Positions 373 through 9,245 of a stretch of DNA of 32,733 nucleotides are shown piece after piece. Under the pieces are notes generated by a model. It made no database searches. It was given only the letters and a program-made list of their open reading frames with translations, and was not told the DNA's origin. The stretch is from Actinomycetes bacterium (GTDB lineage: Bacteria > Actinomycetota > Thermoleophilia > Solirubrobacterales > Solirubrobacteraceae). The first letter of the stretch is position 1; every line of letters begins with the position of its first letter. The stretch spans positions 1-32,733 of the forward strand of contig JAKAED010000025.1 of NCBI GenBank assembly GCA_021820105.1, read 5' to 3'. Position numbers and translations under genes: made by a program.

Positions 373-379
373 CACGGCA

Positions 380-451
380 CTGCGGGACAAGGACTCGAAC
401 CTTGAATACCAGGGCCAGAACCTGGCGTGTTGCCAATTACACCATCCCGCA
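380..451 (-). tRNA. tRNA-Gln (anticodon CTG)
   Basis: Read on the minus strand, the 7-bp acceptor stem TGCGGGA/TCCCGCA closes a 72-base cloverleaf. The D arm carries GTGTAATTGGCAACAC. The anticodon stem is CCAGG/CCTGG with loop TTCTGGC, giving anticodon CTG for codon CAG. The T arm carries TTCGAGT between AAGG and CCTT. The discriminator base is G, as is usual for glutamine tRNAs. CCA is not encoded, so it must be added by nucleotidyltransferase. A TATACT box lies upstream and a hairpin terminator downstream, so this looks like a stand-alone tRNA transcript. Confidence 0.95.
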
Positions 452-464
452 ATTGGAATGGGCG

Positions 465-518: not shown

Positions 519-1919
519 GTGACGGCCCTCGTTTGGTTCAGGCGCGATCTGCGCCTTCATGACAACCCGGCTCTGAGCGCGGCCCAGGCCGAGCATGAGC
601 AGCTGATTCCCGTTTTCTGCCTGGACGAGAGACTGTTGGCTGGCGCACACCGCTCGATCCCGCGGACCGCATTCATGCACGGATGCCTGCGCGAACTCAA
701 CGATGACCTGCGGGCGCTGGGCTCTAGGCTCATCGTGCGCAGCGCACGCCCGGAGGTGGCGCTGCCACAACTGGCTGAGGAGACCGGCGCCGACACCGTC
801 CTGGCGGCAGCGGACGTGAGCCCGTTTGCGCGACGCCGCGACCGTGCAACTGCCGCGGCACTTGACGAGCGGGGCGTGCGCCTGAGGCTGCTTCCCGGAT
901 GCTTCGCAGTGGACGACCTGGGCCCGATCATGAGCGGCGCCGGCACGCCGTACACGGTGTTCACGCCGTTCTACAAGCGCTGGCTCCAGGCGCCGCGACG
1001 AACGGTCTACGGCGCCCCGCGACAACTGCCTGTTGTGCCGGCAGAGATCGAATCAGCAGCTCTGCCGGAACCGCTCGGAGCACCTCCGAGCTCAGGCTTC
1101 GCTCCAGGCGAGGCGGCGGGTCGCGAGCGGATGCTGCAGTTCGTGGAGACCGGGTCGCAGGGATACGCCCAGAACCACGACCTGGTTGCCGAGCACGGCA
1201 CCTCAGGGCTCTCCCCATACCTGCACTTCGGTTGCGTCTCAGCTCGAGAGCTGGAGAGCCTGCTACCCGACACGGACGACGCCGCAGCTGCACGCCGACA
1301 ACTCTGCTGGCGCGACTTCTACGCGCATGTGCTTCTGCACCATCCCGGTAACGCGCACCACGAGCAACAGGAGCGCCTGCGGCGGCGAATCAAATGGAAT
1401 CGCTCGATGAGCCTGTTCGACGCGTGGCGCGAGGGACGCACGGGATATCCGCTCGTGGATGCCGGGATGCGAGAGCTGGCAGCCACCGGATACATGCACA
1501 ACCGCTCACGTCTGGTCGTCGGCTCCTTCCTGGTCAAGGACATGGGCATCGACTGGCGCTGGGGCGAGCGCTGGTTCATGCGCATGTTGCTGGACGGCGA
1601 CGAGGCCAACAACAACGGCAACTGGCAGTGGATCGCCTCGGTCGGCGTGGATCCGCAGCCGCCGTCGCGTCGCATGTTCAACCCGACCCTGCAGCAGCGC
1701 AGGTTCGACCCCGACGGCCGCTACGTCCGGCTCCATGTCCCGGAGCTGAGAAATGTCCCCGATGAATACCTGGCCGAGCCCTGGACGATGCCCGACGAGA
1801 TACAGCGTCGGTCCGGATGCATAATCGGGAAGGACTATCCGGCGCCTGTCCTGGATCACGCGCAGGCACGGCTGGAGGCGATTGCTCGTTACGCCGAGGC
1901 AGTTCAGCGCGAGGCGTGA
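519..1919 (+). CDS. phrB: Deoxyribodipyrimidine photolyase (DNA photolyase/cryptochrome family)
   Basis: This flavoprotein uses blue/near-UV light to split cyclobutane pyrimidine dimers in DNA. The 466-residue product is close to the family's usual length (E. coli PhrB is 472). The N terminus (TALVWFRRDLRLHDNPAL) is the antenna-binding alpha/beta domain. The C-terminal FAD domain carries GYPLVDAGMREL, the NNNGNWQW segment near the flavin and MFNPTLQQRRFDPDG. A GTG start is used with no strong Shine-Dalgarno sequence. The gene diverges from tRNA-Gln, and its end overlaps the DUF1295 gene by 16 bases, tail to tail. Its place beside the MerR-DICT lipid operon fits light- or singlet-oxygen-responsive islands known in other bacteria. 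Substrate type (CPD rather than 6-4) is inferred from overall similarity. Confidence 0.93.
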   Translation: MTALVWFRRDLRLHDNPALSAAQAEHEQLIPVFCLDERLLAGAHRSIPRTAFMHGCLRELNDDLRALGSRLIVRSARPEVALPQLAEETGADTVLAAADVSPFARRRDRATAAALDERGVRLRLLPGCFAVDDLGPIMSGAGTPYTVFTPFYKRWLQAPRRTVYGAPRQLPVVPAEIESAALPEPLGAPPSSGFAPGEAAGRERMLQFVETGSQGYAQNHDLVAEHGTSGLSPYLHFGCVSARELESLLPDTDDAAAARRQLCWRDFYAHVLLHHPGNAHHEQQERLRRRIKWNRSMSLFDAWREGRTGYPLVDAGMRELAATGYMHNRSRLVVGSFLVKDMGIDWRWGERWFMRMLLDGDEANNNGNWQWIASVGVDPQPPSRRMFNPTLQQRRFDPDGRYVRLHVPELRNVPDEYLAEPWTMPDEIQRRSGCIIGKDYPAPVLDHAQARLEAIARYAEAVQREA

Positions 1920-2710
1920 TCATTCGACGGGCGCGCGGGCGGCAGCGGCAGAAAGCCGGAGGTGCGCCGCACGTAATCTGCGTAACCGGGACGCCGCTCA
2001 GCGATGTCCCGTTCGAGCAGGCCCTTGCCTGAGACTCGTACCAGCAGCAGCGACATGACCAGCGGTGAGACAACGGTCCACCAGCTGCCGCCCGCCTGGA
2101 GCGTCACCAACCAAAGCCCCCACCAGACGCAGGCGTCGCCAAAGTAGTTGGGATGGCGCGTGTATCGCCAGAGCCCACGATCCATCACCTGGCCTCGGTT
2201 CCCTGGATCCGCCTTGAAGCGCCGGAGCTGCTCATCTCCAACGGCCTCGAAGCCGAGGCCCAGGGCGAATAGTGCAAGCCCGGGAATCGCCGCCCAACCA
2301 AGCCCGGTTGTGCGCTCGGCGGCCACCTGCAGCGGCAGCGAGATGATGAGCACCAACAGCGCCTGCACCAGGTAGACGTAGACGAGGCTCCAGACCGCGA
2401 AGTTGGCCGGGTGCGCAGTCCGCATGGCCGCGTAGCGACGATCCTCGCCGGGCTCGTGGAGCTTACGCCTGGTCAGATGGAGCGTCAGTCTGAGCCCCCA
2501 AACGGCCGTGAGCCCGAGCAGCAGCCACCTGCGGGCCGGGGCACCATCGCCCGTAAGCGCTGCCACAGCCGCAACACAGACGAATGCCGCCCCCCAGACC
2601 GGGTCGATCACGGAGGCATCCTTCAGCCTCAAGCTGAGCAGCCACGTGGCCAGGATCAAGACTCCCACCACTGCCGCCGCCCACGGCAGCACAACCCCGG
2701 GTCCGCTCAT
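1904..2710 (-). CDS. DUF1295 family integral membrane protein (steroid 5-alpha-reductase/ICMT-like fold)
   Basis: A multi-pass membrane protein of 268 residues. Hydrophobic segments run from the N terminus (VLPWAAAVVGVLILATWLLS) onwards. The C-terminal half has the family signature RYTRHPNYFGDACVWWGLW, also found in isoprenylcysteine methyltransferases and sterol reductases, where it binds cofactor. The function of DUF1295 proteins is not established; a lipid-reducing or lipid-modifying role is inferred from the neighbours. I chose the ATG at 2710 because it overlaps the upstream methyltransferase stop as ATGA. An in-frame start at 2755 would lie inside that gene and add a non-hydrophobic leader. 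It is the last gene of the merR-led operon. Confidence 0.85.
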   Translation of the reverse strand: MSGPGVVLPWAAAVVGVLILATWLLSLRLKDASVIDPVWGAAFVCVAAVAALTGDGAPARRWLLLGLTAVWGLRLTLHLTRRKLHEPGEDRRYAAMRTAHPANFAVWSLVYVYLVQALLVLIISLPLQVAAERTTGLGWAAIPGLALFALGLGFEAVGDEQLRRFKADPGNRGQVMDRGLWRYTRHPNYFGDACVWWGLWLVTLQAGGSWWTVVSPLVMSLLLVRVSGKGLLERDIAERRPGYADYVRRTSGFLPLPPARPSNDHASR

Positions 2711-3762
2711 GAGGCACCCAGCGCCGGGCGGAACCGGTAGTGGCTGACAAGCCAACGGTTACCCGCGTCTCTCCCCCAGATGACAGCTGTCGAGATCAAG
2801 AAGAGCCGCCACGTCGCGAGCAGGCGCTGTGCATCTCTGGTTGAACGTCCGTCGGCCGCGAGCACGGCGAGCGCCTGCTCTCGATTGTCGTCGAGACGCT
2901 CCAGCCAAGCACGCAACGTGCTTGCGTAGTGCGTGCCAGGGACGGCCCAGCGCTCCTCCAACGTCAGGTGTCGCTGAAAGTGAAGCGGAAGCTCATGACT
3001 CGGCATCAGCCCCGCCGTGAAGAAGCGCTCGGCGGCCCAGGTGCCCTCGAACAGGTAGGGAACGGTTCGATGCGAGAACACATGCATGAAGAAGCGTCCA
3101 TCCGGTTTGAGCCAGCCCGCGACTCGCCGCAGCAGCTCATGCCAGTTGCGCATGTGTTCGAACATCTCGATGGAGAGCACGCGGTCAAAGGTTCCGGTTG
3201 GCACAAAGCCGTTCACGTCAGCTGTGACCACACGCAGGTTTCGCAGCTGCAGATCACGCGCCCGAGACTCGATGAAGCGACGCTGGCTGTCGGAGTTGGA
3301 TACCGCCAGCACCTCACAGGCGGGATAGTGCTCCGCCAGCCAAATCGATAGCGATCCCCAGCCACAGCCCAGGTCAAGCAGGCGCATACCGTCCCCGATC
3401 TGCGCACGCTCACAGGTAAGCTCGAGCATCGCCTGCTCAGCCTGCTCGAGCGTATCCACACCCGCGGGCCACAGGCAGCCCGAGTATTTGCGGCGCGGCC
3501 CCAGAAACAGTCCGAAGAAGTCGGCGGGAAGCTCATAGTGCTGCTCGTTGGCCGTGTCCGTGGCCTCAGCGATCGGTCCTCCCCGCATGCGGTCGAGCAA
3601 CTGCTGCAGTCGCTCCTCCTGGCCCGCCACGCCTCCGCGCAGCTCTCTGCGCTCGCGCAGCTCAGCACCAACGAACGACCCCAGCCGCAGGAGCGGGTCG
3701 GGGAGCAGTCCGCGAGTCAGCGCGATGTCCAGAAGCGGGTAGGCGACACGCTCACGCCACAT
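2707..3762 (-). CDS. SAM-dependent methyltransferase, CFA-synthase superfamily, coclaurine N-methyltransferase-like
   Basis: A 351-residue class I methyltransferase. The SAM-binding motif LLDLGCGWGSLSIWLAEHYP lies near residues 128-147. NEQHYELPADFFGLFLG, the KYSGC segment (Cys96) and SIEMFEHM (about 197-204) follow the cyclopropane-synthase superfamily pattern. FMHVFSHR and FFTAGLMPS with GTHYAST closely follow plant coclaurine N-methyltransferases. Here it lies next to a second CFA-type enzyme, so lipid methylation is as likely as amine methylation; the substrate is unknown. The ATG at 3762 has a strong GGAGAGGAG sequence seven bases upstream; an ATG at 3780 would place that ribosome-binding site inside the gene. 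It overlaps the upstream gene by 11 bases and the DUF1295 gene by four. Confidence 0.85.
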   Translation of the reverse strand: MWRERVAYPLLDIALTRGLLPDPLLRLGSFVGAELRERRELRGGVAGQEERLQQLLDRMRGGPIAEATDTANEQHYELPADFFGLFLGPRRKYSGCLWPAGVDTLEQAEQAMLELTCERAQIGDGMRLLDLGCGWGSLSIWLAEHYPACEVLAVSNSDSQRRFIESRARDLQLRNLRVVTADVNGFVPTGTFDRVLSIEMFEHMRNWHELLRRVAGWLKPDGRFFMHVFSHRTVPYLFEGTWAAERFFTAGLMPSHELPLHFQRHLTLEERWAVPGTHYASTLRAWLERLDDNREQALAVLAADGRSTRDAQRLLATWRLFLISTAVIWGRDAGNRWLVSHYRFRPALGAS

Positions 3763-4996
3763 GCTCGAACTCCTCTCCATGTCTCATCGAGTGCGGCGCC
3801 ATGGAGGCGCGCCGCCTGAATGCGGGCTTCCCGAGCAGCAGCTGCACATCGCCTATCCGCCGCTCCGCGAATCCTCCCTCGCAATAGGCCAGATAGAGGT
3901 TCCAGATGCGCCGGAAGCGCTCGTCATACCCCCGCTCAGCGAGCGCCTCGGCATTTTCCGTGAAGCGCCCCCGCCACCGCCTGAGCGTCTCCACGTAGTC
4001 CTCGGTTATGTCCTGCAGGTCAAGGACGCTCAGGTCCGTGCGTCGCGCAAGCGCGCGGGTCAGGATCGACAAAGAAGGCAGCGCCCCGCCAGGGAAGATG
4101 TACTCCTTGATGAAGGAACGGCTGGCCTTCTCCACGGCATAGGCACGATCGTCGATCGTGATCGCCTGCAGCAGCATCGCACCGTCCGGCACCAGCAGGT
4201 TCGAGCAGTGGTTGAGGAAACCGCCGAACCCACGCCATCCCACGGCCTCAATCATCTCGATCGACACCAGCTTGTCGTAGGAGCCGCGTAGGTCCCTGAA
4301 ATCATTGTCAAGCACGGTGATCCGCTCGCCAAGGTCGGATGCTCGCACCCGCTCTTTGACGTAGCGGTACTGCTCACGAGAGATCGTCGTGGTGGTGACG
4401 TGACAGCCGCGAGTGGAGGCGGCATGGATCGCGAATGAGCCCCAGCCGCTGCCGATCTCAAGCACCCGGTCGCCCGAATTCAGCTCCAACTGCTCACACA
4501 CACGCTCCAGCTTGGCGAGCTGTGCCTCCTCCAGGGAGAGGCTCGGATCCGAGAAGATCGCGCACGAGTAGGTCATGGTCGGGTCGAGCATCAGCGAGAA
4601 GAGCTCGTTGCCGAGGTCGTAATGTGCAGCTATGTCGCGGCGACGCTGATCGCGGCCCGAGGGCCTGGCGGCGGCACGCGCCAGCTCAATCGGGCGCAGC
4701 ACTGGCGCACTCACGGTGCGCAGGCGGTCCAACAGCGGCATCACCCGAGCGCCGAGTCGAACCAGCGCGACCAGATCCGGTGACTCCCACAGCCCGTCAG
4801 CGTAGACATCCGCCAGCCCCAGACTGCCGCGGAGAAACGCGGTCCATACCTCCGGTGAGTGAATGACCATGGTCGCTTGGGGGGTACCTCGCCCGTGGGT
4901 CTCGCGCCGGCCATCAGGTTCGACGATCGTCAGCGAACCCGCTGCGAGTCCACGCAGTGCCGCCTTCACGAACACCCGGGCAAGCTCCGGCTTCAT
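3752..4996 (-). CDS. Cyclopropane-fatty-acyl-phospholipid synthase family methyltransferase
   Basis: A 414-residue enzyme that should transfer a methyl group from SAM to the double bond of an unsaturated phospholipid acyl chain. Visible are DIAAHYDLGNELFSLMLDPT, the SAM motif VLEIGSGWGSF (178-188), MTYSCAIF with Cys145, SIEMIEAVG with Glu247 and EDYVETL with Tyr334. These match the bicarbonate-site Cys, Glu and Tyr of E. coli CFA synthase. The bicarbonate-binding His of that enzyme is replaced by Gln277 (LLQAI instead of LLHTI). That change is familiar in the subfamily found beside DUF1365 and FAD oxidoreductase genes, and may mean a methyl-branched or furan precursor rather than a cyclopropane product. 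The ATG start overlaps the DUF1365 stop by four bases. I avoid the symbol cfa because of the altered site. Confidence 0.88.
   Translation of the reverse strand: MKPELARVFVKAALRGLAAGSLTIVEPDGRRETHGRGTPQATMVIHSPEVWTAFLRGSLGLADVYADGLWESPDLVALVRLGARVMPLLDRLRTVSAPVLRPIELARAAARPSGRDQRRRDIAAHYDLGNELFSLMLDPTMTYSCAIFSDPSLSLEEAQLAKLERVCEQLELNSGDRVLEIGSGWGSFAIHAASTRGCHVTTTTISREQYRYVKERVRASDLGERITVLDNDFRDLRGSYDKLVSIEMIEAVGWRGFGGFLNHCSNLLVPDGAMLLQAITIDDRAYAVEKASRSFIKEYIFPGGALPSLSILTRALARRTDLSVLDLQDITEDYVETLRRWRGRFTENAEALAERGYDERFRRIWNLYLAYCEGGFAERRIGDVQLLLGKPAFRRRASMAPHSMRHGEEFEHVA
3770..3778 (-). promoter_or_regulatory. Ribosome-binding site that decides the methyltransferase start
   Basis: GGAGAGGAG on the minus strand sits seven bases before the ATG at 3762 and inside the 3' end of the preceding CFA-like gene. 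It favours 3762 over the alternative in-frame ATG at 3780. Confidence 0.7.
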
Positions 4997-5718
4997 GCCC
5001 CACCTCGCTGCGGGTGCGAAAAGTGCCGCACACCCGCCAACTTGAGTCCGATGGCGTGCCCGTAGATCAGCGCCAGCGTGCGCATGGTGGCAAAGGGATA
5101 ACGAGCCGTGACACGCCGGACGGTTGCGGTGGTCAACTCGATCCTGGTCAGCGCGAGCGCGGCCGCAAACTCCCGTCGACCTTCGCGGTGGTTCTCGATG
5201 GAGACCGACACCCGCTCCCCAGGATGGGTCGTGTGACAGACGTAAACCTGGTCCATCGGCATGAAAGGCGAGACGTGCATGAGTTTCTCAAAGCGGCCCG
5301 TGTCACCGGCGATCACATAACCCTGACGCTCGCCCCATGGTGTGTTTGTCACCTCGGCCAATACAGCCTGCACACGCGACCCCCCATCATCAAAGCAGTA
5401 GTAGAAGGTGACGGGGTTGAAGCAGTGGCCCAGTGAACGGAGGTTGGTCAGCATGCGCACTGGACCGGTTGGCCGCAAACCAGTTTCCTGCTCGACCGTT
5501 TGGCGCACTGCCTCATCCAGTGACAGGTGCGGATCTCCGTGATAGTCCGCGCGCCGGAAGCGCATCAGACCGGGCCCCTTCTGTAGCAGGCGCCCTCCAA
5601 GCAGCGTCGGCAACTCGTAGAGGTCCACGTAAGCCATGGCCACGCGGTGGGTGAAGGTGCGCTCAGGGCGGTCGCGGCGGTGGGTGAGCGTGCCCTCATA
5701 CAGGCAACTTGCGGTCAC
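4993..5718 (-). CDS. DUF1365 domain-containing protein
   Basis: 241 residues covering the whole family length. Recognisable segments are SCLYEGTLTHRR at the N terminus, RTFTHRVAMAYVDLYELP, RFRRADYHGDP, GHCFNPVTFYYCFD and FMPMDQVYVCHTTHPGERVSVSIENH. DUF1365 proteins have no firmly assigned reaction, but they are nearly always encoded between an FAD oxidoreductase and a CFA-type methyltransferase, so a role in the same acyl-chain modification is inferred. The start is GTG at 5718, overlapping the FAD oxidoreductase stop (GTGA). The end overlaps the next start (ATGA), so translation is probably coupled in both directions. Confidence 0.9.
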   Translation of the reverse strand: MTASCLYEGTLTHRRDRPERTFTHRVAMAYVDLYELPTLLGGRLLQKGPGLMRFRRADYHGDPHLSLDEAVRQTVEQETGLRPTGPVRMLTNLRSLGHCFNPVTFYYCFDDGGSRVQAVLAEVTNTPWGERQGYVIAGDTGRFEKLMHVSPFMPMDQVYVCHTTHPGERVSVSIENHREGRREFAAALALTRIELTTATVRRVTARYPFATMRTLALIYGHAIGLKLAGVRHFSHPQRGGA

Positions 5719-6962
5719 AGGTTCGCTCCGAACTCCGCGGCCACCCGCAACGCACTCCTGACACCGTCCTCATGGAAGCCCCAGCCCCAGTAGGCACCGC
5801 AAAAGTGAGTCCGTTGCTCCATGCCGGAGATCTCAGCGATCCGACGCTGCGCCGCCACCCCGGCAGATGTGAACACGGGGTGCGCGTACCGCAGCCTGCT
5901 GATCACGGTGTCCGGTCGGATGCGCTCGGAGAGGTTGAGCGTCACGCAGAACTGCGTGTCGGAGCGCAGCCGCTGAAGCCGATTGAGGTGGTAGGTCACA
6001 GCAGCGCCGCCACGGTGGTCCGAGAGCAGGTGATAGTTCCAGCTACTCCAAGCCCGCCGTCTGGCGGGCAGCAGCGTTTGGTCGCTGTGGAGCACAACAT
6101 CGTTCTCCTGGTACGGAATGGCCCCGAGGATATCTCGCTCGTTTGCGCTGGCATCACCGAGCAGCGCAAGTGCCTGATCCGAATGCGTGGCCAGCACCAC
6201 CTGTTCAAAGTACAACGGCTCTGAACCATCGACGGTGAGTTTCACACCGTCGCCCTCGCGGGTGATGGATCTGACCGGGCTCCCCAACCTGACCCGATCC
6301 TGGAAGCCGGAGGCGAGCGCCTCCACATAGCGAATTGACCCGCCGCTGATCGTCCTCCAGGCTGGACGGTCCCGCAGGCTCAGCATCCCGTGATTGTCAA
6401 AGAAGCGAGCCAGGAAGAGCGCCGGGAAGCTCCACATCTGGCTGGGGTCAGCCGACCAGACGGCCGCGGCCTGCGGCACGATCAGACGCTCGACGAAGCT
6501 GTTTGAGAAGCGCTGCTCTCGGAGCCAGGCGCGCAGTGAGAGCTGCTCGTCGGGCTCACGCAGGAGCGCGCGGGCGGCGCGTTGGAAACGCGGCACCTCA
6601 GCGACCATCCGCAGGAAGGCCGGGTTCAGCGCGTTGCTGCGAACGGCGAACAGACCGTCGAGCGAATTGCTGGCGTACTCAAATGATCCGACGTCATCAC
6701 TCACGCTGAAGCTCATATCCGAAGGTTGAGTCGTGACACGCAAGCGCGCCAGCAGTTTCTCGAAGTTCGGATAGTTGCGGTCATTGAAGACGATGAAACC
6801 GGTGTCCAGATCATGCGTCTGATCGGGCGCCTCCACCCTCACCGTGTGGGAGTGCCCGCCGAGTCTGGGCTCCGCCTCGAAGACAGTGACCTCATGGTTT
6901 CCATGCAACAGGTAGGCGACGGTGAGACCGGATATTCCGCCACCGACCACGGCGACTCTCAT
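5715..6962 (-). CDS. FAD-dependent NAD(P)/amine-oxidase-like oxidoreductase (COG2907 type)
   Basis: 415 residues opening with a Rossmann FAD-binding fold, MRVAVVGGGISGLTVAYLL, followed by EAEPRLGGHSHTV and DTGFIVFNDRNYPNF. Further hallmarks are FLARFFDNHGMLS, the GGSIRYVEAL segment and the C-terminal GAYWGWGFHEDGVRS, where the flavin ring is bound. Members resemble amine oxidases and phytoene-desaturase relatives and occur with DUF1365 and CFA-like genes. Acyl-chain dehydrogenation or desaturation is the likely role, by analogy with the methylated furan fatty acid pathway of alphaproteobacteria; this is inference. An AAGGAG ribosome-binding site lies five bases before the ATG. It follows merR by 33 bases. 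Confidence 0.88.
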   Translation of the reverse strand: MRVAVVGGGISGLTVAYLLHGNHEVTVFEAEPRLGGHSHTVRVEAPDQTHDLDTGFIVFNDRNYPNFEKLLARLRVTTQPSDMSFSVSDDVGSFEYASNSLDGLFAVRSNALNPAFLRMVAEVPRFQRAARALLREPDEQLSLRAWLREQRFSNSFVERLIVPQAAAVWSADPSQMWSFPALFLARFFDNHGMLSLRDRPAWRTISGGSIRYVEALASGFQDRVRLGSPVRSITREGDGVKLTVDGSEPLYFEQVVLATHSDQALALLGDASANERDILGAIPYQENDVVLHSDQTLLPARRRAWSSWNYHLLSDHRGGAAVTYHLNRLQRLRSDTQFCVTLNLSERIRPDTVISRLRYAHPVFTSAGVAAQRRIAEISGMEQRTHFCGAYWGWGFHEDGVRSALRVAAEFGANL

Positions 6963-6995: not shown

Positions 6996-7832
6996 TCAGG
7001 ACAGCAGACTCAGCGTCCGGTTGACGACGGCAGCCGTCAGCCGGACCTGCTCAGCCGGAACGGACGCAGAGTCGACCGTGAGTGCCAGCTCGGCGCGGCG
7101 GCCCAGATCCGGTGAGGCATCGCGGATCAGCATGATGCCAATTCGCGCCAATGCCCGAACCGCTTCAGGATCCACTGTCCAGAGCAACTCGAACTCACGC
7201 TCCGCCGGGGACGTGTTGACGTTTGAGCCAGCCAGCTCACGCGCGACCATGCAGATGGAAGAGCGCCCGCCGTAGAGCACGAGGGCCCACTCGCGAGCGA
7301 TCTGCCGCCAGCGACCGATCGGAATCTCGGAGGGACCGATTTCATACTCGCACGGCTGCGCGAAGTCCGCGAACACAGCCGCCACCCGCGCAGTTGATGC
7401 CAACTCCCGCCAGCGAGCCTCCGAGTCCCGGTAGAAAGCTTCCCGTTGGAAGCTGGCGAGCATGATGCGAGCATCCGCTCGGACCAGCATCTCGTCCTCG
7501 ATCGCGTGGCTGAGCGCCGTCAGGATGGGTTTTCGCACAGCGCGAGCATCGAGCTCGGGACGCAGCGTGCGCAGCGCCGAGAACATTGAGGTCTCCTCCG
7601 GATCCGGAGGTGTCTGCGCACGCGCAATCGCCGCCGGCAGTGAGAGACCGGCGTCCCGCAAGGCGAGGACCTGTTCCACCACGGCCACCTGATCGTCGGA
7701 GTAGCGGCGGTGTCCGCTGTCTGTGCGGCGTGGTTCGGGGAAGCCGTAACGCCGCTCCCACATGCGGAGAGTCGGCTCCGGAATCCCGGTGCGAGCCACA
7801 AAGTCGCCGATACTGAGAACAAACCTGGACAA
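6996..7832 (-). CDS. MerR-family transcriptional regulator with C-terminal DICT sensory domain
   Basis: 278 residues. The N terminus is a MerR winged helix-turn-helix (LSIGDFVARTGIPEPTLRMWERRYGFPEPRR, about residues 6-36, then SGHRRYSDDQV). The C-terminal half looks like a DICT domain: ALSHAIEDEML, LASFQREAFYRDSEARWREL, VAAVFADFAQP, PIGRWRQIAREWALVLYG and FELLWTVDPEAVRALARIG. DICT domains have been linked to light signalling and are joined to MerR in actinobacteria; the ligand is unknown. There is no cobalamin-binding domain, so it is not a CarH/LitR photoreceptor, although it occupies the same genomic role. The only in-frame start is TTG at 7832, since a TAG lies just upstream. With no ribosome-binding site, a leaderless mRNA is likely. 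It heads the lipid operon and probably controls both directions. Confidence 0.9.
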   Translation of the reverse strand: MSRFVLSIGDFVARTGIPEPTLRMWERRYGFPEPRRTDSGHRRYSDDQVAVVEQVLALRDAGLSLPAAIARAQTPPDPEETSMFSALRTLRPELDARAVRKPILTALSHAIEDEMLVRADARIMLASFQREAFYRDSEARWRELASTARVAAVFADFAQPCEYEIGPSEIPIGRWRQIAREWALVLYGGRSSICMVARELAGSNVNTSPAEREFELLWTVDPEAVRALARIGIMLIRDASPDLGRRAELALTVDSASVPAEQVRLTAAVVNRTLSLLS

Positions 7833-7833
7833 C

Positions 7834-7851
7834 GTGTATAAGCTTATCTAC
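7834..7851. promoter_or_regulatory. Palindromic operator/promoter between merR and the SDR gene
   Basis: Only bases 7833-7851 separate the divergent start codons. They contain a perfect palindrome ATAAGCTTAT (7838-7847) inside a wider imperfect dyad GTGTATAAGCTTATCTAC. TATAAG (7837-7842) is a plausible plus-strand -10 box and GATAAG (7848-7843) a minus-strand one. Either would start transcription at or within a few bases of its start codon. A MerR dimer bound here would occlude both promoters or remodel them. The -35 elements are not recognisable. Confidence 0.65.
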
Positions 7852-8775
7852 ATGGCACGTATAGTTGTTTCCGGAGCGAGCGGCACGATCGGCAGCGCCG
7901 TCTGCCGCGCGCTGAGCGAGCGGGGCGACCAGGTGATCGCACTTTCACGCGAGCCGCAACGCGCGGCGTTTGGCCTTCCAGACGGGATTGAATGCCACGG
8001 CTGGAGGGATCCTGCAGCAACTCCGCCGCCGGCTCCGGCCCTGGCAGGCGCAGACGCCGTGATTCACCTGTTGGGTGAACCGGTGTCACAGCGCTGGAGC
8101 CCGGCGGCCAAACAGCGGATCCGCGACTCACGCGTCCTGTCCACCCGGCACCTGGTCTCGGCGATCGAGTCGCTCGCCGAGGAGGACCGGCCGGCCGTGC
8201 TGGTTTCGCAATCGGCCACCGGTTACTACGGCCCTCGGGACGACACGAAGCTTGATGAGGACGCTCCTGCCGGCGGCGATTTCCTGGCGGAGGTCGTGCG
8301 TGACTGGGAGCAGGAGGCGCTCCGGGCGGAGTCCCTCTGCCGCGTTGTCGTAACCCGCACCGGCGTGGTGCTCTCACCCACCGGCGGCGCCCTTGCAAAG
8401 ATGCTGCCCTTTTTCCGAGCCGGGATCGGCGGGCCGGTCGCCGGTGGCCAACAGTACGTCCCGTGGATACACCTGGACGATGTCGTCGGCGGGCTGCTCT
8501 TCTGCGTAGATTCACCCACGGCCAGCGGCGCCATCAACCTGACGGCCCCACGGCCCGTGGACAATGCCGAGCTGTCACGGGCACTCGGTCGCGTCTTGCA
8601 CCGGCCAGCGGTCCTGCCCGTACCGGGATTTGCGCTGAAGCTGCTCTACGGTCAAATGTCGGAGATAGTGCTCACCGGTCAACGAGCGCTTCCCCAACGC
8701 CTGATCAAACTCGGCTTCAGCTTCAGGCATCCCGAGGTTGAGCCGGCCCTGCGTGACGTGCTGGTGAGCGGATGA
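7852..8775 (+). CDS. TIGR01777 family epimerase-like SDR protein
   Basis: 307 residues with the extended short-chain dehydrogenase fold. The NAD(P)-binding motif is VVSGASGTIGSAVCRAL at the N terminus. VIHLLGEPVSQRWSPAAKQRI, SQSATGYYG (active-site region), RTGVVLSPTGGALAKMLPFF and QYVPWIHLDDVVGGLLF are characteristic of the TIGR01777/YfcH group. The reaction is unknown. The true start is ATG at 7852; the open frame extends 90 bases upstream, but that part is antisense to merR's N terminus. The end overlaps the SRPBCC gene (ATGA). TIGR01777 and SRPBCC genes are often neighbours or fused, and both recur in light- and stress-induced photolyase islands. Confidence 0.9.
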   Translation: MARIVVSGASGTIGSAVCRALSERGDQVIALSREPQRAAFGLPDGIECHGWRDPAATPPPAPALAGADAVIHLLGEPVSQRWSPAAKQRIRDSRVLSTRHLVSAIESLAEEDRPAVLVSQSATGYYGPRDDTKLDEDAPAGGDFLAEVVRDWEQEALRAESLCRVVVTRTGVVLSPTGGALAKMLPFFRAGIGGPVAGGQQYVPWIHLDDVVGGLLFCVDSPTASGAINLTAPRPVDNAELSRALGRVLHRPAVLPVPGFALKLLYGQMSEIVLTGQRALPQRLIKLGFSFRHPEVEPALRDVLVSG

Positions 8776-9245
8776 GCGTGCACCTGTACAGGGCGGAGCA
8801 ACGGGTCAAAGCGCCGCTACCGGAGGTCTTTGACTTCTTCTCCAGGGCAGCGAACCTAGAGCGGATCACTCCGCCCTGGCTGAGCTTCTCCATCCTGGGA
8901 ACACATCCTGAGCAGGTCGTCCCGGGTACCGTGATCCCCTACCGCCTGAGGCTGCACGGGATCCCGCTGATCTGGGTTTCACAGATAGAGCAGTTCGAGC
9001 CCAACCGCATGTTTGAAGACCGCCAGCTGGTCGGACCTTATAAGCGCTGGGACCACCGTCATGAGTTCGAGGGAGATGGCGAGCACACGATCATCCGGGA
9101 CGCGGTCAGCTACGAACTTCCGCTAGGTCCGCTTGGCGACGCCATCAATCAGCTCTTCGTGCGCAGGGACATTGAGCGGATCTTTGAACACCGCCGCCAG
9201 ACCATCGAGCGGCTGCTGCAGAGTCAGCTGCGGGCAGTCGACTAG
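8772..9245 (+). CDS. SRPBCC family protein (START/polyketide-cyclase-like fold)
   Basis: 157 residues beginning YRAEQRVKAPLPEVFDFFSRAANLERITPPWLSF, the usual opening of a ligand-binding SRPBCC (Bet v 1-like) domain. It continues with RLHGIPLIWVSQIEQFEPNRMFEDRQLVGPYKRWDH-type core strands. This family binds hydrophobic ligands in a deep pocket. The ligand is unknown; a lipid or aromatic product of the neighbouring enzymes is possible. It is translationally coupled to the SDR through an ATGA overlap. Its TAG stop shares the palindrome CTAG with the stop of the convergent TrkA gene. No membrane segment or signal peptide is visible, so it is probably cytoplasmic. Confidence 0.87.
   Translation: MSVHLYRAEQRVKAPLPEVFDFFSRAANLERITPPWLSFSILGTHPEQVVPGTVIPYRLRLHGIPLIWVSQIEQFEPNRMFEDRQLVGPYKRWDHRHEFEGDGEHTIIRDAVSYELPLGPLGDAINQLFVRRDIERIFEHRRQTIERLLQSQLRAVD

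What the first reader, a model, noticed from the sequence alone, without database searches (positions are those of the whole stretch)
7833..7851. 19-bp divergent control region with a perfect palindrome and probable leaderless starts on both sides
The merR TTG and the SDR ATG are only 19 bases apart. Between them lies ATAAGCTTAT within a wider dyad, overlapping candidate -10 boxes on both strands. There is no room for Shine-Dalgarno sequences, so both mRNAs are probably leaderless. One dimeric site would control both halves of the island.
Basis: partly seen in the sequence, partly recalled or inferred. Interest (0 to 1): 0.55.

Follow-up and report, generated by a model that had tools for sequence, protein, structure and literature searches.

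The report
MerR-DICT operator on back-to-back promoters
In a soil actinobacterium, a gene-control protein related to known bacterial light sensors appears to bind one short DNA site, lying over two back-to-back gene starts and its own first codons, to switch itself and a neighbouring membrane-lipid gene cluster.

Summary
The 19-bp spacer, ATAAGCTTAT and the absence of Shine-Dalgarno sequences are real. The HindIII-type palindrome is not the conserved element: its 10-bp form is perfect in 1 of 6 compact loci. The conserved element is a 25-bp dyad, AAACCTGGACA-acg-TGTATAAGCTT, at 7821-7845. It is centred on 7833 and runs into merR codons 1-4. Across 28 genomes of the genus, its consensus occurs once in each of 9 genomes and reversed controls never. 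Seven sites lie on merR-DICT starts and two before a DUF1990 gene. Two relatives whose regulator is detached from the amine-oxidase operon carry extra dyads before that operon and the DUF1990 gene. It is therefore most likely the regulator's own operator. Half-sites contain the TnnACA core of CarH operators, but inverted with a 3-bp gap. TAAGCT -10 boxes on both strands overlap inside it, 13-14 bp from each start, where this genus shows a leaderless-promoter peak. When the SDR gene lies 72-73 bp away (2 relatives), it has a Shine-Dalgarno and no such box, while merR keeps its own. Best reading: one MerR-DICT dimer represses a near-leaderless bidirectional promoter. Binding, transcript starts, sign of control and signal are untested. 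No copy lies upstream of the photolyase.

The parts
7821..7845 (.). 25-bp inverted repeat AAACCTGGACA-ACG-TGTATAAGCTT, proposed operator of the MerR-DICT regulator
   Evidence: consensus with up to 2 mismatches found once in each of 9 of 28 genus genomes, reversed-pattern control 0.
7841..7846 (-). Proposed -10 box (TAAGCT) of the merR promoter, starting 14 bp before the TTG
   Evidence: TANNNT at -14 in 7 of 8 loci; TANNNT peak at -15 to -12 of start codons in two genomes of the genus.
7839..7844 (+). Proposed -10 box (TAAGCT) of the SDR promoter, starting 13 bp before the ATG
   Evidence: TANNNT at -13/-15 in 6 of 6 compact loci, absent in the 2 loci with a 72-73 bp spacer, where an SD appears instead.
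7838..7847 (.).
   Evidence: present, but perfect in 1 of 6 compact loci.
6996..7832 (-). merR-DICT regulator, TTG start; codons 1-4 (TTG TCC AGG TTT) hold the right half-site
   Evidence: Pfam MerR_1, DICT; Arg3 AGG in 6 of 6 orthologues; DNA-binding domain nearest CarA/LitR/CarH.
7852..8775 (+). Divergent SDR-type epimerase (Epimerase + DUF1731)
   Evidence: five of six compact loci have an in-frame stop just upstream of this ATG.
8772..9245 (+). Polyketide_cyc/SRPBCC-type protein, overlapping the SDR gene end; likely same transcript
5715..6962 (-). FAD amine oxidase, first gene after merR; preceded by AAGGAG Shine-Dalgarno by direct reading
4993..5718 (-). DUF1365 protein (domain of UfaO of furan fatty acid synthesis)
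   Evidence: PMC7380195 passages.
1904..4996 (-). Two CMAS-type methyltransferases and a DUF1295 protein, overlapping reading frames
519..1919 (+). DNA photolyase, convergent with the operon; no operator copy upstream

Best explanation
The spacer is a compact bidirectional promoter whose two near-leaderless mRNAs start about 20 bp apart from overlapping -10 boxes. It is covered by the single high-scoring operator of the MerR-DICT regulator found here. A regulator dimer binds the 25-bp inverted repeat 7821-7845 (half-site AAACYTNNACA, 3-bp gap), one arm of which is encoded by the regulator's own first four codons. Binding blocks RNA polymerase at both -10 boxes, giving autorepression of merR with its downstream amine oxidase-DUF1365-CMAS operon and repression of the SDR-SRPBCC pair. 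A signal sensed by the DICT domain (plausibly light or oxidative stress) releases it. Shown by sequence comparison: the dyad, its conservation, its recurrence at the same targets in relatives, the -10 positions, the lack of SD. Inferred: protein binding, transcript starts, repression rather than activation, the signal.
For: Dyad consensus once in each of 9 of 28 genus genomes, 0 reversed controls: 7 at merR-DICT, 2 upstream of a DUF1990 gene. A matrix from the 7 merR sites finds dyads at -37/-38 of the DUF1990 gene in 5 of 8 genomes, 3 of them new. It finds p<0.02 dyads in 24 of 58 other MerR-DICT upstream regions, about 1 expected. ACA-N3-TGT occurs in 11 of 58 against a shuffled mean of 0.9; gaps 0-2 and 4-8 give 0-3. 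L034 and L035 carry extra sites 70-72 bp before the amine-oxidase start. Rare codon AGG (6.6% of Arg codons in 14 window genes) is kept at Arg3 in 6 of 6 orthologues. TANNNT/SD switch between compact and long-spacer loci. Leaderless peak in G011 and in the own genome, ATG 14 of 171 against 0 of 743 internal. DNA-binding domain nearest CarA/LitR/CarH.
Against: TTG starts show no clear leaderless enrichment (4 of 112 in G011, 2.0 expected off-peak; 2 of 74 in G000, 0.8 expected), and the merR locus itself lies inside both samples. L004 merR lacks TANNNT. No -35 is recognisable for either direction. G025 has the DUF1990-side dyad although no full-length MerR-DICT match was found in that 89%-complete genome. 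34 of 58 other MerR-DICT upstream regions lack a p<0.02 dyad, and some hits lie far from the start. A sequence-blind dyad test at gap 3 (23 of 58, against shuffled mean 13.7, max 21) is only modestly above shuffles. The regions are related to each other, so counts are not independent.
Confidence: 0.6

Rival explanations
1. SoxR-like split control: the dimer activates the SDR direction by distorting the promoter while blocking merR.
For: The dyad centre (7833) lies about 19 bp before the SDR start (21 in the other compact loci) but at the merR start. SoxR does this at PsoxS/soxR, also a bidirectional promoter (PMC12825309).
Against: The SDR -10 lies inside the dyad, no -35 is visible at a 19-bp distance, and the same -10-over-dyad layout recurs at merR of L009/L010 and at the amine-oxidase sites of L034/L035 (direct reading).
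Confidence: 0.2
2. The site is purely the autoregulatory operator of merR; the SDR gene is merely packed against it and is not regulated.
For: In L007 and L008 the dyad stays at the same place relative to merR while the SDR gene sits 72-73 bp away with its own SD.
Against: In compact loci the SDR -10 lies inside the dyad; L008 keeps an extra half-site AAACCTAGACA in the spacer; the DUF1990 and amine-oxidase sites show the dyad is not only autoregulatory.
Confidence: 0.12
3. Only a symmetric bidirectional promoter: the dyad is a by-product of two back-to-back -10 boxes with no regulator.
For: -10 symmetry alone yields divergent starts 7-25 bp apart, with 18, 10 and 23 common (PMC10268837, PMC12825309).
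Against: The conserved half AAACCTGGACA lies outside the -10 boxes, inside coding sequence with a rare codon, and the dyad recurs in front of other genes.
Confidence: 0.05
4. ATAAGCTTAT itself is the operator, as first proposed.
For: Perfect palindrome, unique in the window.
Against: Perfect in 1 of 6 compact loci; relatives have AAGATT, AAGTTT or AGTTTT at that place.
Confidence: 0.03

Closest known systems
CarH/CarA/LitR (MerR-type light-dependent repressors)
   Same: Closest solved DNA-binding domains (2jml CarA E 3e-13, 3whp, 5c8d CarH; Foldseek top hits CarH). Half-site contains their TnnACA; CarH operators overlap -35 or -10 elements (PMC9304148 passages).
   Different: Sensor is DICT, not B12-binding. 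Half-sites are inverted with a 3-bp gap, not tandem 11-bp direct repeats, and carry a longer AAACY arm.
SoxR at the E. coli soxS/soxR bidirectional promoter
   Same: MerR-family regulator on one site within a bidirectional promoter between its own gene and a target (PMC12825309 passages and one section).
   Different: SoxR is an activator of soxS with a 19-bp spaced promoter (its Fe-S cofactor is recalled); here there is no visible -35, the dyad covers the -10 boxes, and starts appear leaderless.
Symmetric bidirectional promoters
   Same: Overlapping -10 boxes on both strands, predicted starts 20-22 bp apart, within the 7-25 bp definition (PMC10268837).
   Different: Both transcripts appear leaderless, so the start codons themselves are 20-22 bp apart.
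Furan fatty acid genes of Rhodobacter (ufaM, ufaD, ufaO)
   Same: The operon holds a DUF1365 protein (UfaO domain), CMAS-type methyltransferases and an FAD oxidase.
   Different: Control here is by a MerR-DICT protein, whereas the Rhodobacter genes respond to loss of ChrR; the pathway product here is untested.

Membership tests
MerR family regulator | N-terminal MerR winged helix-turn-helix | tested here: met
   Pfam MerR_1 57.7 bits against cut-off 21.6; AlphaFold model pLDDT 91.7.
MerR family regulator | Dimeric inverted-repeat operator | tested here: inconclusive
   25-bp dyad recurring at regulator and proposed targets; binding itself not testable here.
MerR family regulator, classical activator type | Operator within an over-long -35/-10 spacer | tested here: not met
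   No -35/-10 pair found in 7600-8100 (that scan covers spacers 16-18 only; at 19 bp I saw no -35 by eye); -10 boxes lie inside the dyad.
CarH/LitR light-dependent repressors | B12-binding C-terminal domain | tested here: not met
   C-terminal part is DICT, no B12-binding match.
CarH/LitR light-dependent repressors | Tandem 11-bp direct repeats with TnnACA | tested here: not met
   TnnACA present but as an inverted repeat with N3.
DICT-domain sensor protein | DICT domain | tested here: met
   Pfam PF10069, 54.4 bits against cut-off 23.8.
Leaderless gene | -10 box 6-9 bp before the start codon and no SD | tested here: met
   with census.
Leaderless gene | Mapped 5' end at the start codon | not testable with these tools
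   No transcript data held.
Bidirectional promoter | Divergent transcript starts 7-25 bp apart sharing -10 sequence | tested here: inconclusive
   Predicted starts 20-22 bp apart with overlapping TAAGCT boxes; starts not mapped.

The most novel reading that the evidence does not exclude
MerR-DICT proteins are a B12-free branch of the CarA/CarH repressors that reads inverted rather than tandem TnnACA half-sites. They control a furan-fatty-acid-like and photoprotection regulon, and in the most compact form the operator is written into the regulator's own first codons and doubles as a near-leaderless bidirectional promoter.
Probability: 0.4. Interest if true: 0.6.

Novelty: new variant of a known kind. 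Interest (0 to 1): 0.46.

Why it matters
DICT is a Pfam domain predicted, not shown, to respond to light (cited so in PMC8612252). Full-text searches of the held library for DICT with MerR or photolyase returned no paper, and DICT domain alone two that do not treat a MerR regulator's operator (listing; one read in passages). A concrete 25-bp motif with three recurring targets gives a first handle on what such regulators bind and control, and links them to lipid genes related to furan fatty acid synthesis. The locus is also a clean natural comparison for leaderless bidirectional promoters: when spacing opens, the SDR gene has a ribosome site and no -10 box at the leaderless distance.

Tried and rejected
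ATAAGCTTAT as conserved operator: rejected on the spacers of 12 loci. A TGTA-N6-TACA reading of the spacer was considered and dropped because it fits only some compact loci and not the distant ones. The pattern TGTATAAGNTTA was unique in the own genome, so it showed no regulon. AAACCTNGACAAC with one mismatch gave 16 hits against 9 controls, no use alone. The genome-contig scan for names gave 5 useful Solirubrobacterales/Actinomycetes loci, one Nocardioides, and otherwise only weak MerR-domain matches, mostly proteobacterial. The phylum-wide draw found few MerR-DICT genes (8 of 396). Literature searches for CarH with LitR repeats, and for MerR with leaderless and divergent promoter, returned nothing. 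A sequence-blind dyad test was weak.

Full report
Observation. The 19-bp spacer between the merR TTG (7832, minus) and the SDR ATG (7852, plus) is as described, and ATAAGCTTAT lies at 7838-7847. Ten-base perfect palindromes are common in this window (64, shuffles 50.9), so the palindrome alone is weak evidence. The regulator is a MerR-DICT protein, the divergent gene an epimerase-type SDR with DUF1731, followed by an SRPBCC-type gene; on the merR side follow an amine oxidase, DUF1365, two CMAS-type methyltransferases and DUF1295, with a photolyase convergent at the far end. The nearest named relatives are Solirubrobacterales metagenome genomes.

Comparison of spacers. Twelve loci with a divergent SDR gene, the window's own included, were laid side by side. 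Six (the window and L002-L006) have spacers of 19 or 21 bp; L007 and L008 have 73 and 72; four more distant ones 62-108 by alignment-derived starts. The 10-bp palindrome is perfect only in the window, AAGCTT occurs in two of the six compact loci. What is conserved is AAACCTGGACA-N3-TGTATAAG(A/C)TT, a 25-bp inverted repeat at 7821-7845 (L004 deviates, AAACCTAGACA-like with TGTATAGTTTT). L007 and L008 keep it at the same distance from the merR start although the SDR gene has moved away, though in L008 the right arm is degenerate.

Is the dyad more than chance. The consensus AAACYTNNACANNNTGTNNARGTTT with up to 2 mismatches was sought in 28 genomes of the genus: 9 genomes hold exactly one site, the reversed control pattern none. 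Seven sites lie on the merR-DICT start (G000, G007, G011, G012, G017, G020, G024). The other two (G003, G025) lie at the same place upstream of a DUF1990 gene. A matrix from the seven merR sites found dyads at -37/-38 of that gene in 5 of 8 genomes that have it; 3 (L155, L158, L159) lack one. In the window the runner-up scores 2.5 bits against 35.5. With a wider matrix no other site above 9.3 bits was seen in 12 further stretches of the own genome, about 203 kb.

Regulon logic. In G003 (L034) and G009 (L035) the regulator is detached from the amine-oxidase operon. Both loci carry three dyads: at merR, at DUF1990, and 72 or 70 bp before the amine-oxidase start. The DUF1990 sites were in that matrix by construction; the amine-oxidase and merR sites of L034 and L035 were not. 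In the window, where merR heads the operon, one site suffices. This ties the dyad to the regulator and to the lipid operon better than anything inside the window could.

Breadth. In 58 MerR-DICT upstream regions not used for the matrix (60 given, 2 duplicates dropped), 24 have a dyad at p<0.02 by shuffling; 34 do not, and some hits lie far from the start. ACA-N3-TGT occurs in 11 of 58 against 0.9 in shuffles; other gaps from 0 to 8 give at most 3. Arms differ between subgroups. A Nocardioides relative has two AAACCTCGACA half-sites in another arrangement (direct reading).

Coding constraint. The right half-site lies in merR codons 1-4. Arg3 is AGG in 6 of 6 compact orthologues, while AGG is 35 of 533 Arg codons in 14 window genes. 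Among 40 invariant Leu/Arg/Ser columns only 5 keep one codon in all six, two of them codons 1 and 3. Codon 1 is the start codon, so its constancy is not independent evidence.

Starts. Neither start has an SD-like word. In 400 kb of G011 the motif TANNNT peaks at -15 to -12: 38 of 245 ATG candidates against 3 of 1149 internal ATGs, 21 of 362 GTG against 6 of 2887, but TTG only 4 of 112 against 0 of 470 internal, with 2.0 expected from off-peak positions. The own genome (236 kb including the window) agrees: ATG 14 of 171 against 0 of 743, TTG 2 of 74. Gene starts in these counts are candidates from a simple codon model, not annotations. In the compact loci TANNNT stands at -13 or -15 of SDR in 6 of 6. 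At -14 of merR it stands in 7 of 8 loci (L004 lacks it). In L007 and L008 the SDR gene has an SD (GGAGG, AAGGA) and no such box. So leaderless or near-leaderless starts are well supported for SDR. For merR a leader of up to 3 nt is as likely, since TTG is a poor leaderless codon here; L005 has an in-frame ATG directly before the TTG and L007 and L008 use ATG.

Mechanism. The two TAAGCT boxes overlap on opposite strands; predicted starts are 20 bp apart (22 in the other five compact loci). Bidirectional promoters are defined by starts 7-25 bp apart, 18 most common, 10 and 23 also common (PMC10268837 and PMC12825309, passages). The proposed operator covers both boxes and the merR start. The same layout, a -10-like TANNNT inside the dyad, is seen by eye at merR of L009 and L010 and at the amine-oxidase sites of L034 and L035. 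Covering -10 boxes favours repression, as for CarH operators overlapping -35 or -10 (PMC9304148, passages). SoxR-like activation of SDR with repression of merR remains open (PMC12825309, passages and one section). The signal is unknown; DICT has been predicted to respond to light (stated in PMC8612252, passage).

Family. The DNA-binding domain is closest to CarA (2jml), 3whp and CarH (5c8d) by sequence and Foldseek ranks CarH first; the label LitR for 3whp is recalled. The DICT part gave no convincing match among the 50 listed. The half-site AAACYTNNACA contains the CarH TnnACA. It is not a CarH: no B12 domain, no direct repeats. The lipid operon resembles ufa genes because UfaO carries DUF1365 (PMC7380195, passages); likening the amine oxidase to UfaD and the CMAS proteins to UfaM is inference.

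Verdict. New variant of a known kind; interest moderate.

Noticed in passing
L034:7502-8233 (-), L035 around 10599, L153, L154, L156, L157, L160: A DUF1990 gene recurs as second target of the dyad; by eye its start is preceded by a GGGTA box, also in the three genomes that lack the dyad.
   Followed up: partly
window 1904-6962: Amine oxidase, DUF1365, two CMAS-type and DUF1295 genes resemble a furan fatty acid pathway in an actinobacterium, next to a MerR-DICT regulator instead of ChrR.
   Followed up: partly
L117:2325-2858 and 1441-2328 (-): In another family the MerR-DICT gene overlaps the end of an ORF that reads like an ECF-type sigma factor (by eye), and no operator is seen upstream; several other loci (e.g. 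L111, L114-L116) look similar.
   Followed up: partly
L015, L027, L185 merR fronts: More distant MerR-DICT genes have GTTAC-type arms around the same 3-bp-gap geometry, suggesting recognition variants within one family.
   Followed up: no
window 379-452 (-): tRNA-Gln (CTG) gene just upstream of the photolyase gene, on the opposite strand.
   Followed up: no
L008/L033 spacer: A lone half-site AAACCTAGACA sits near the SDR gene in the locus with the 72-bp spacer.
   Followed up: no
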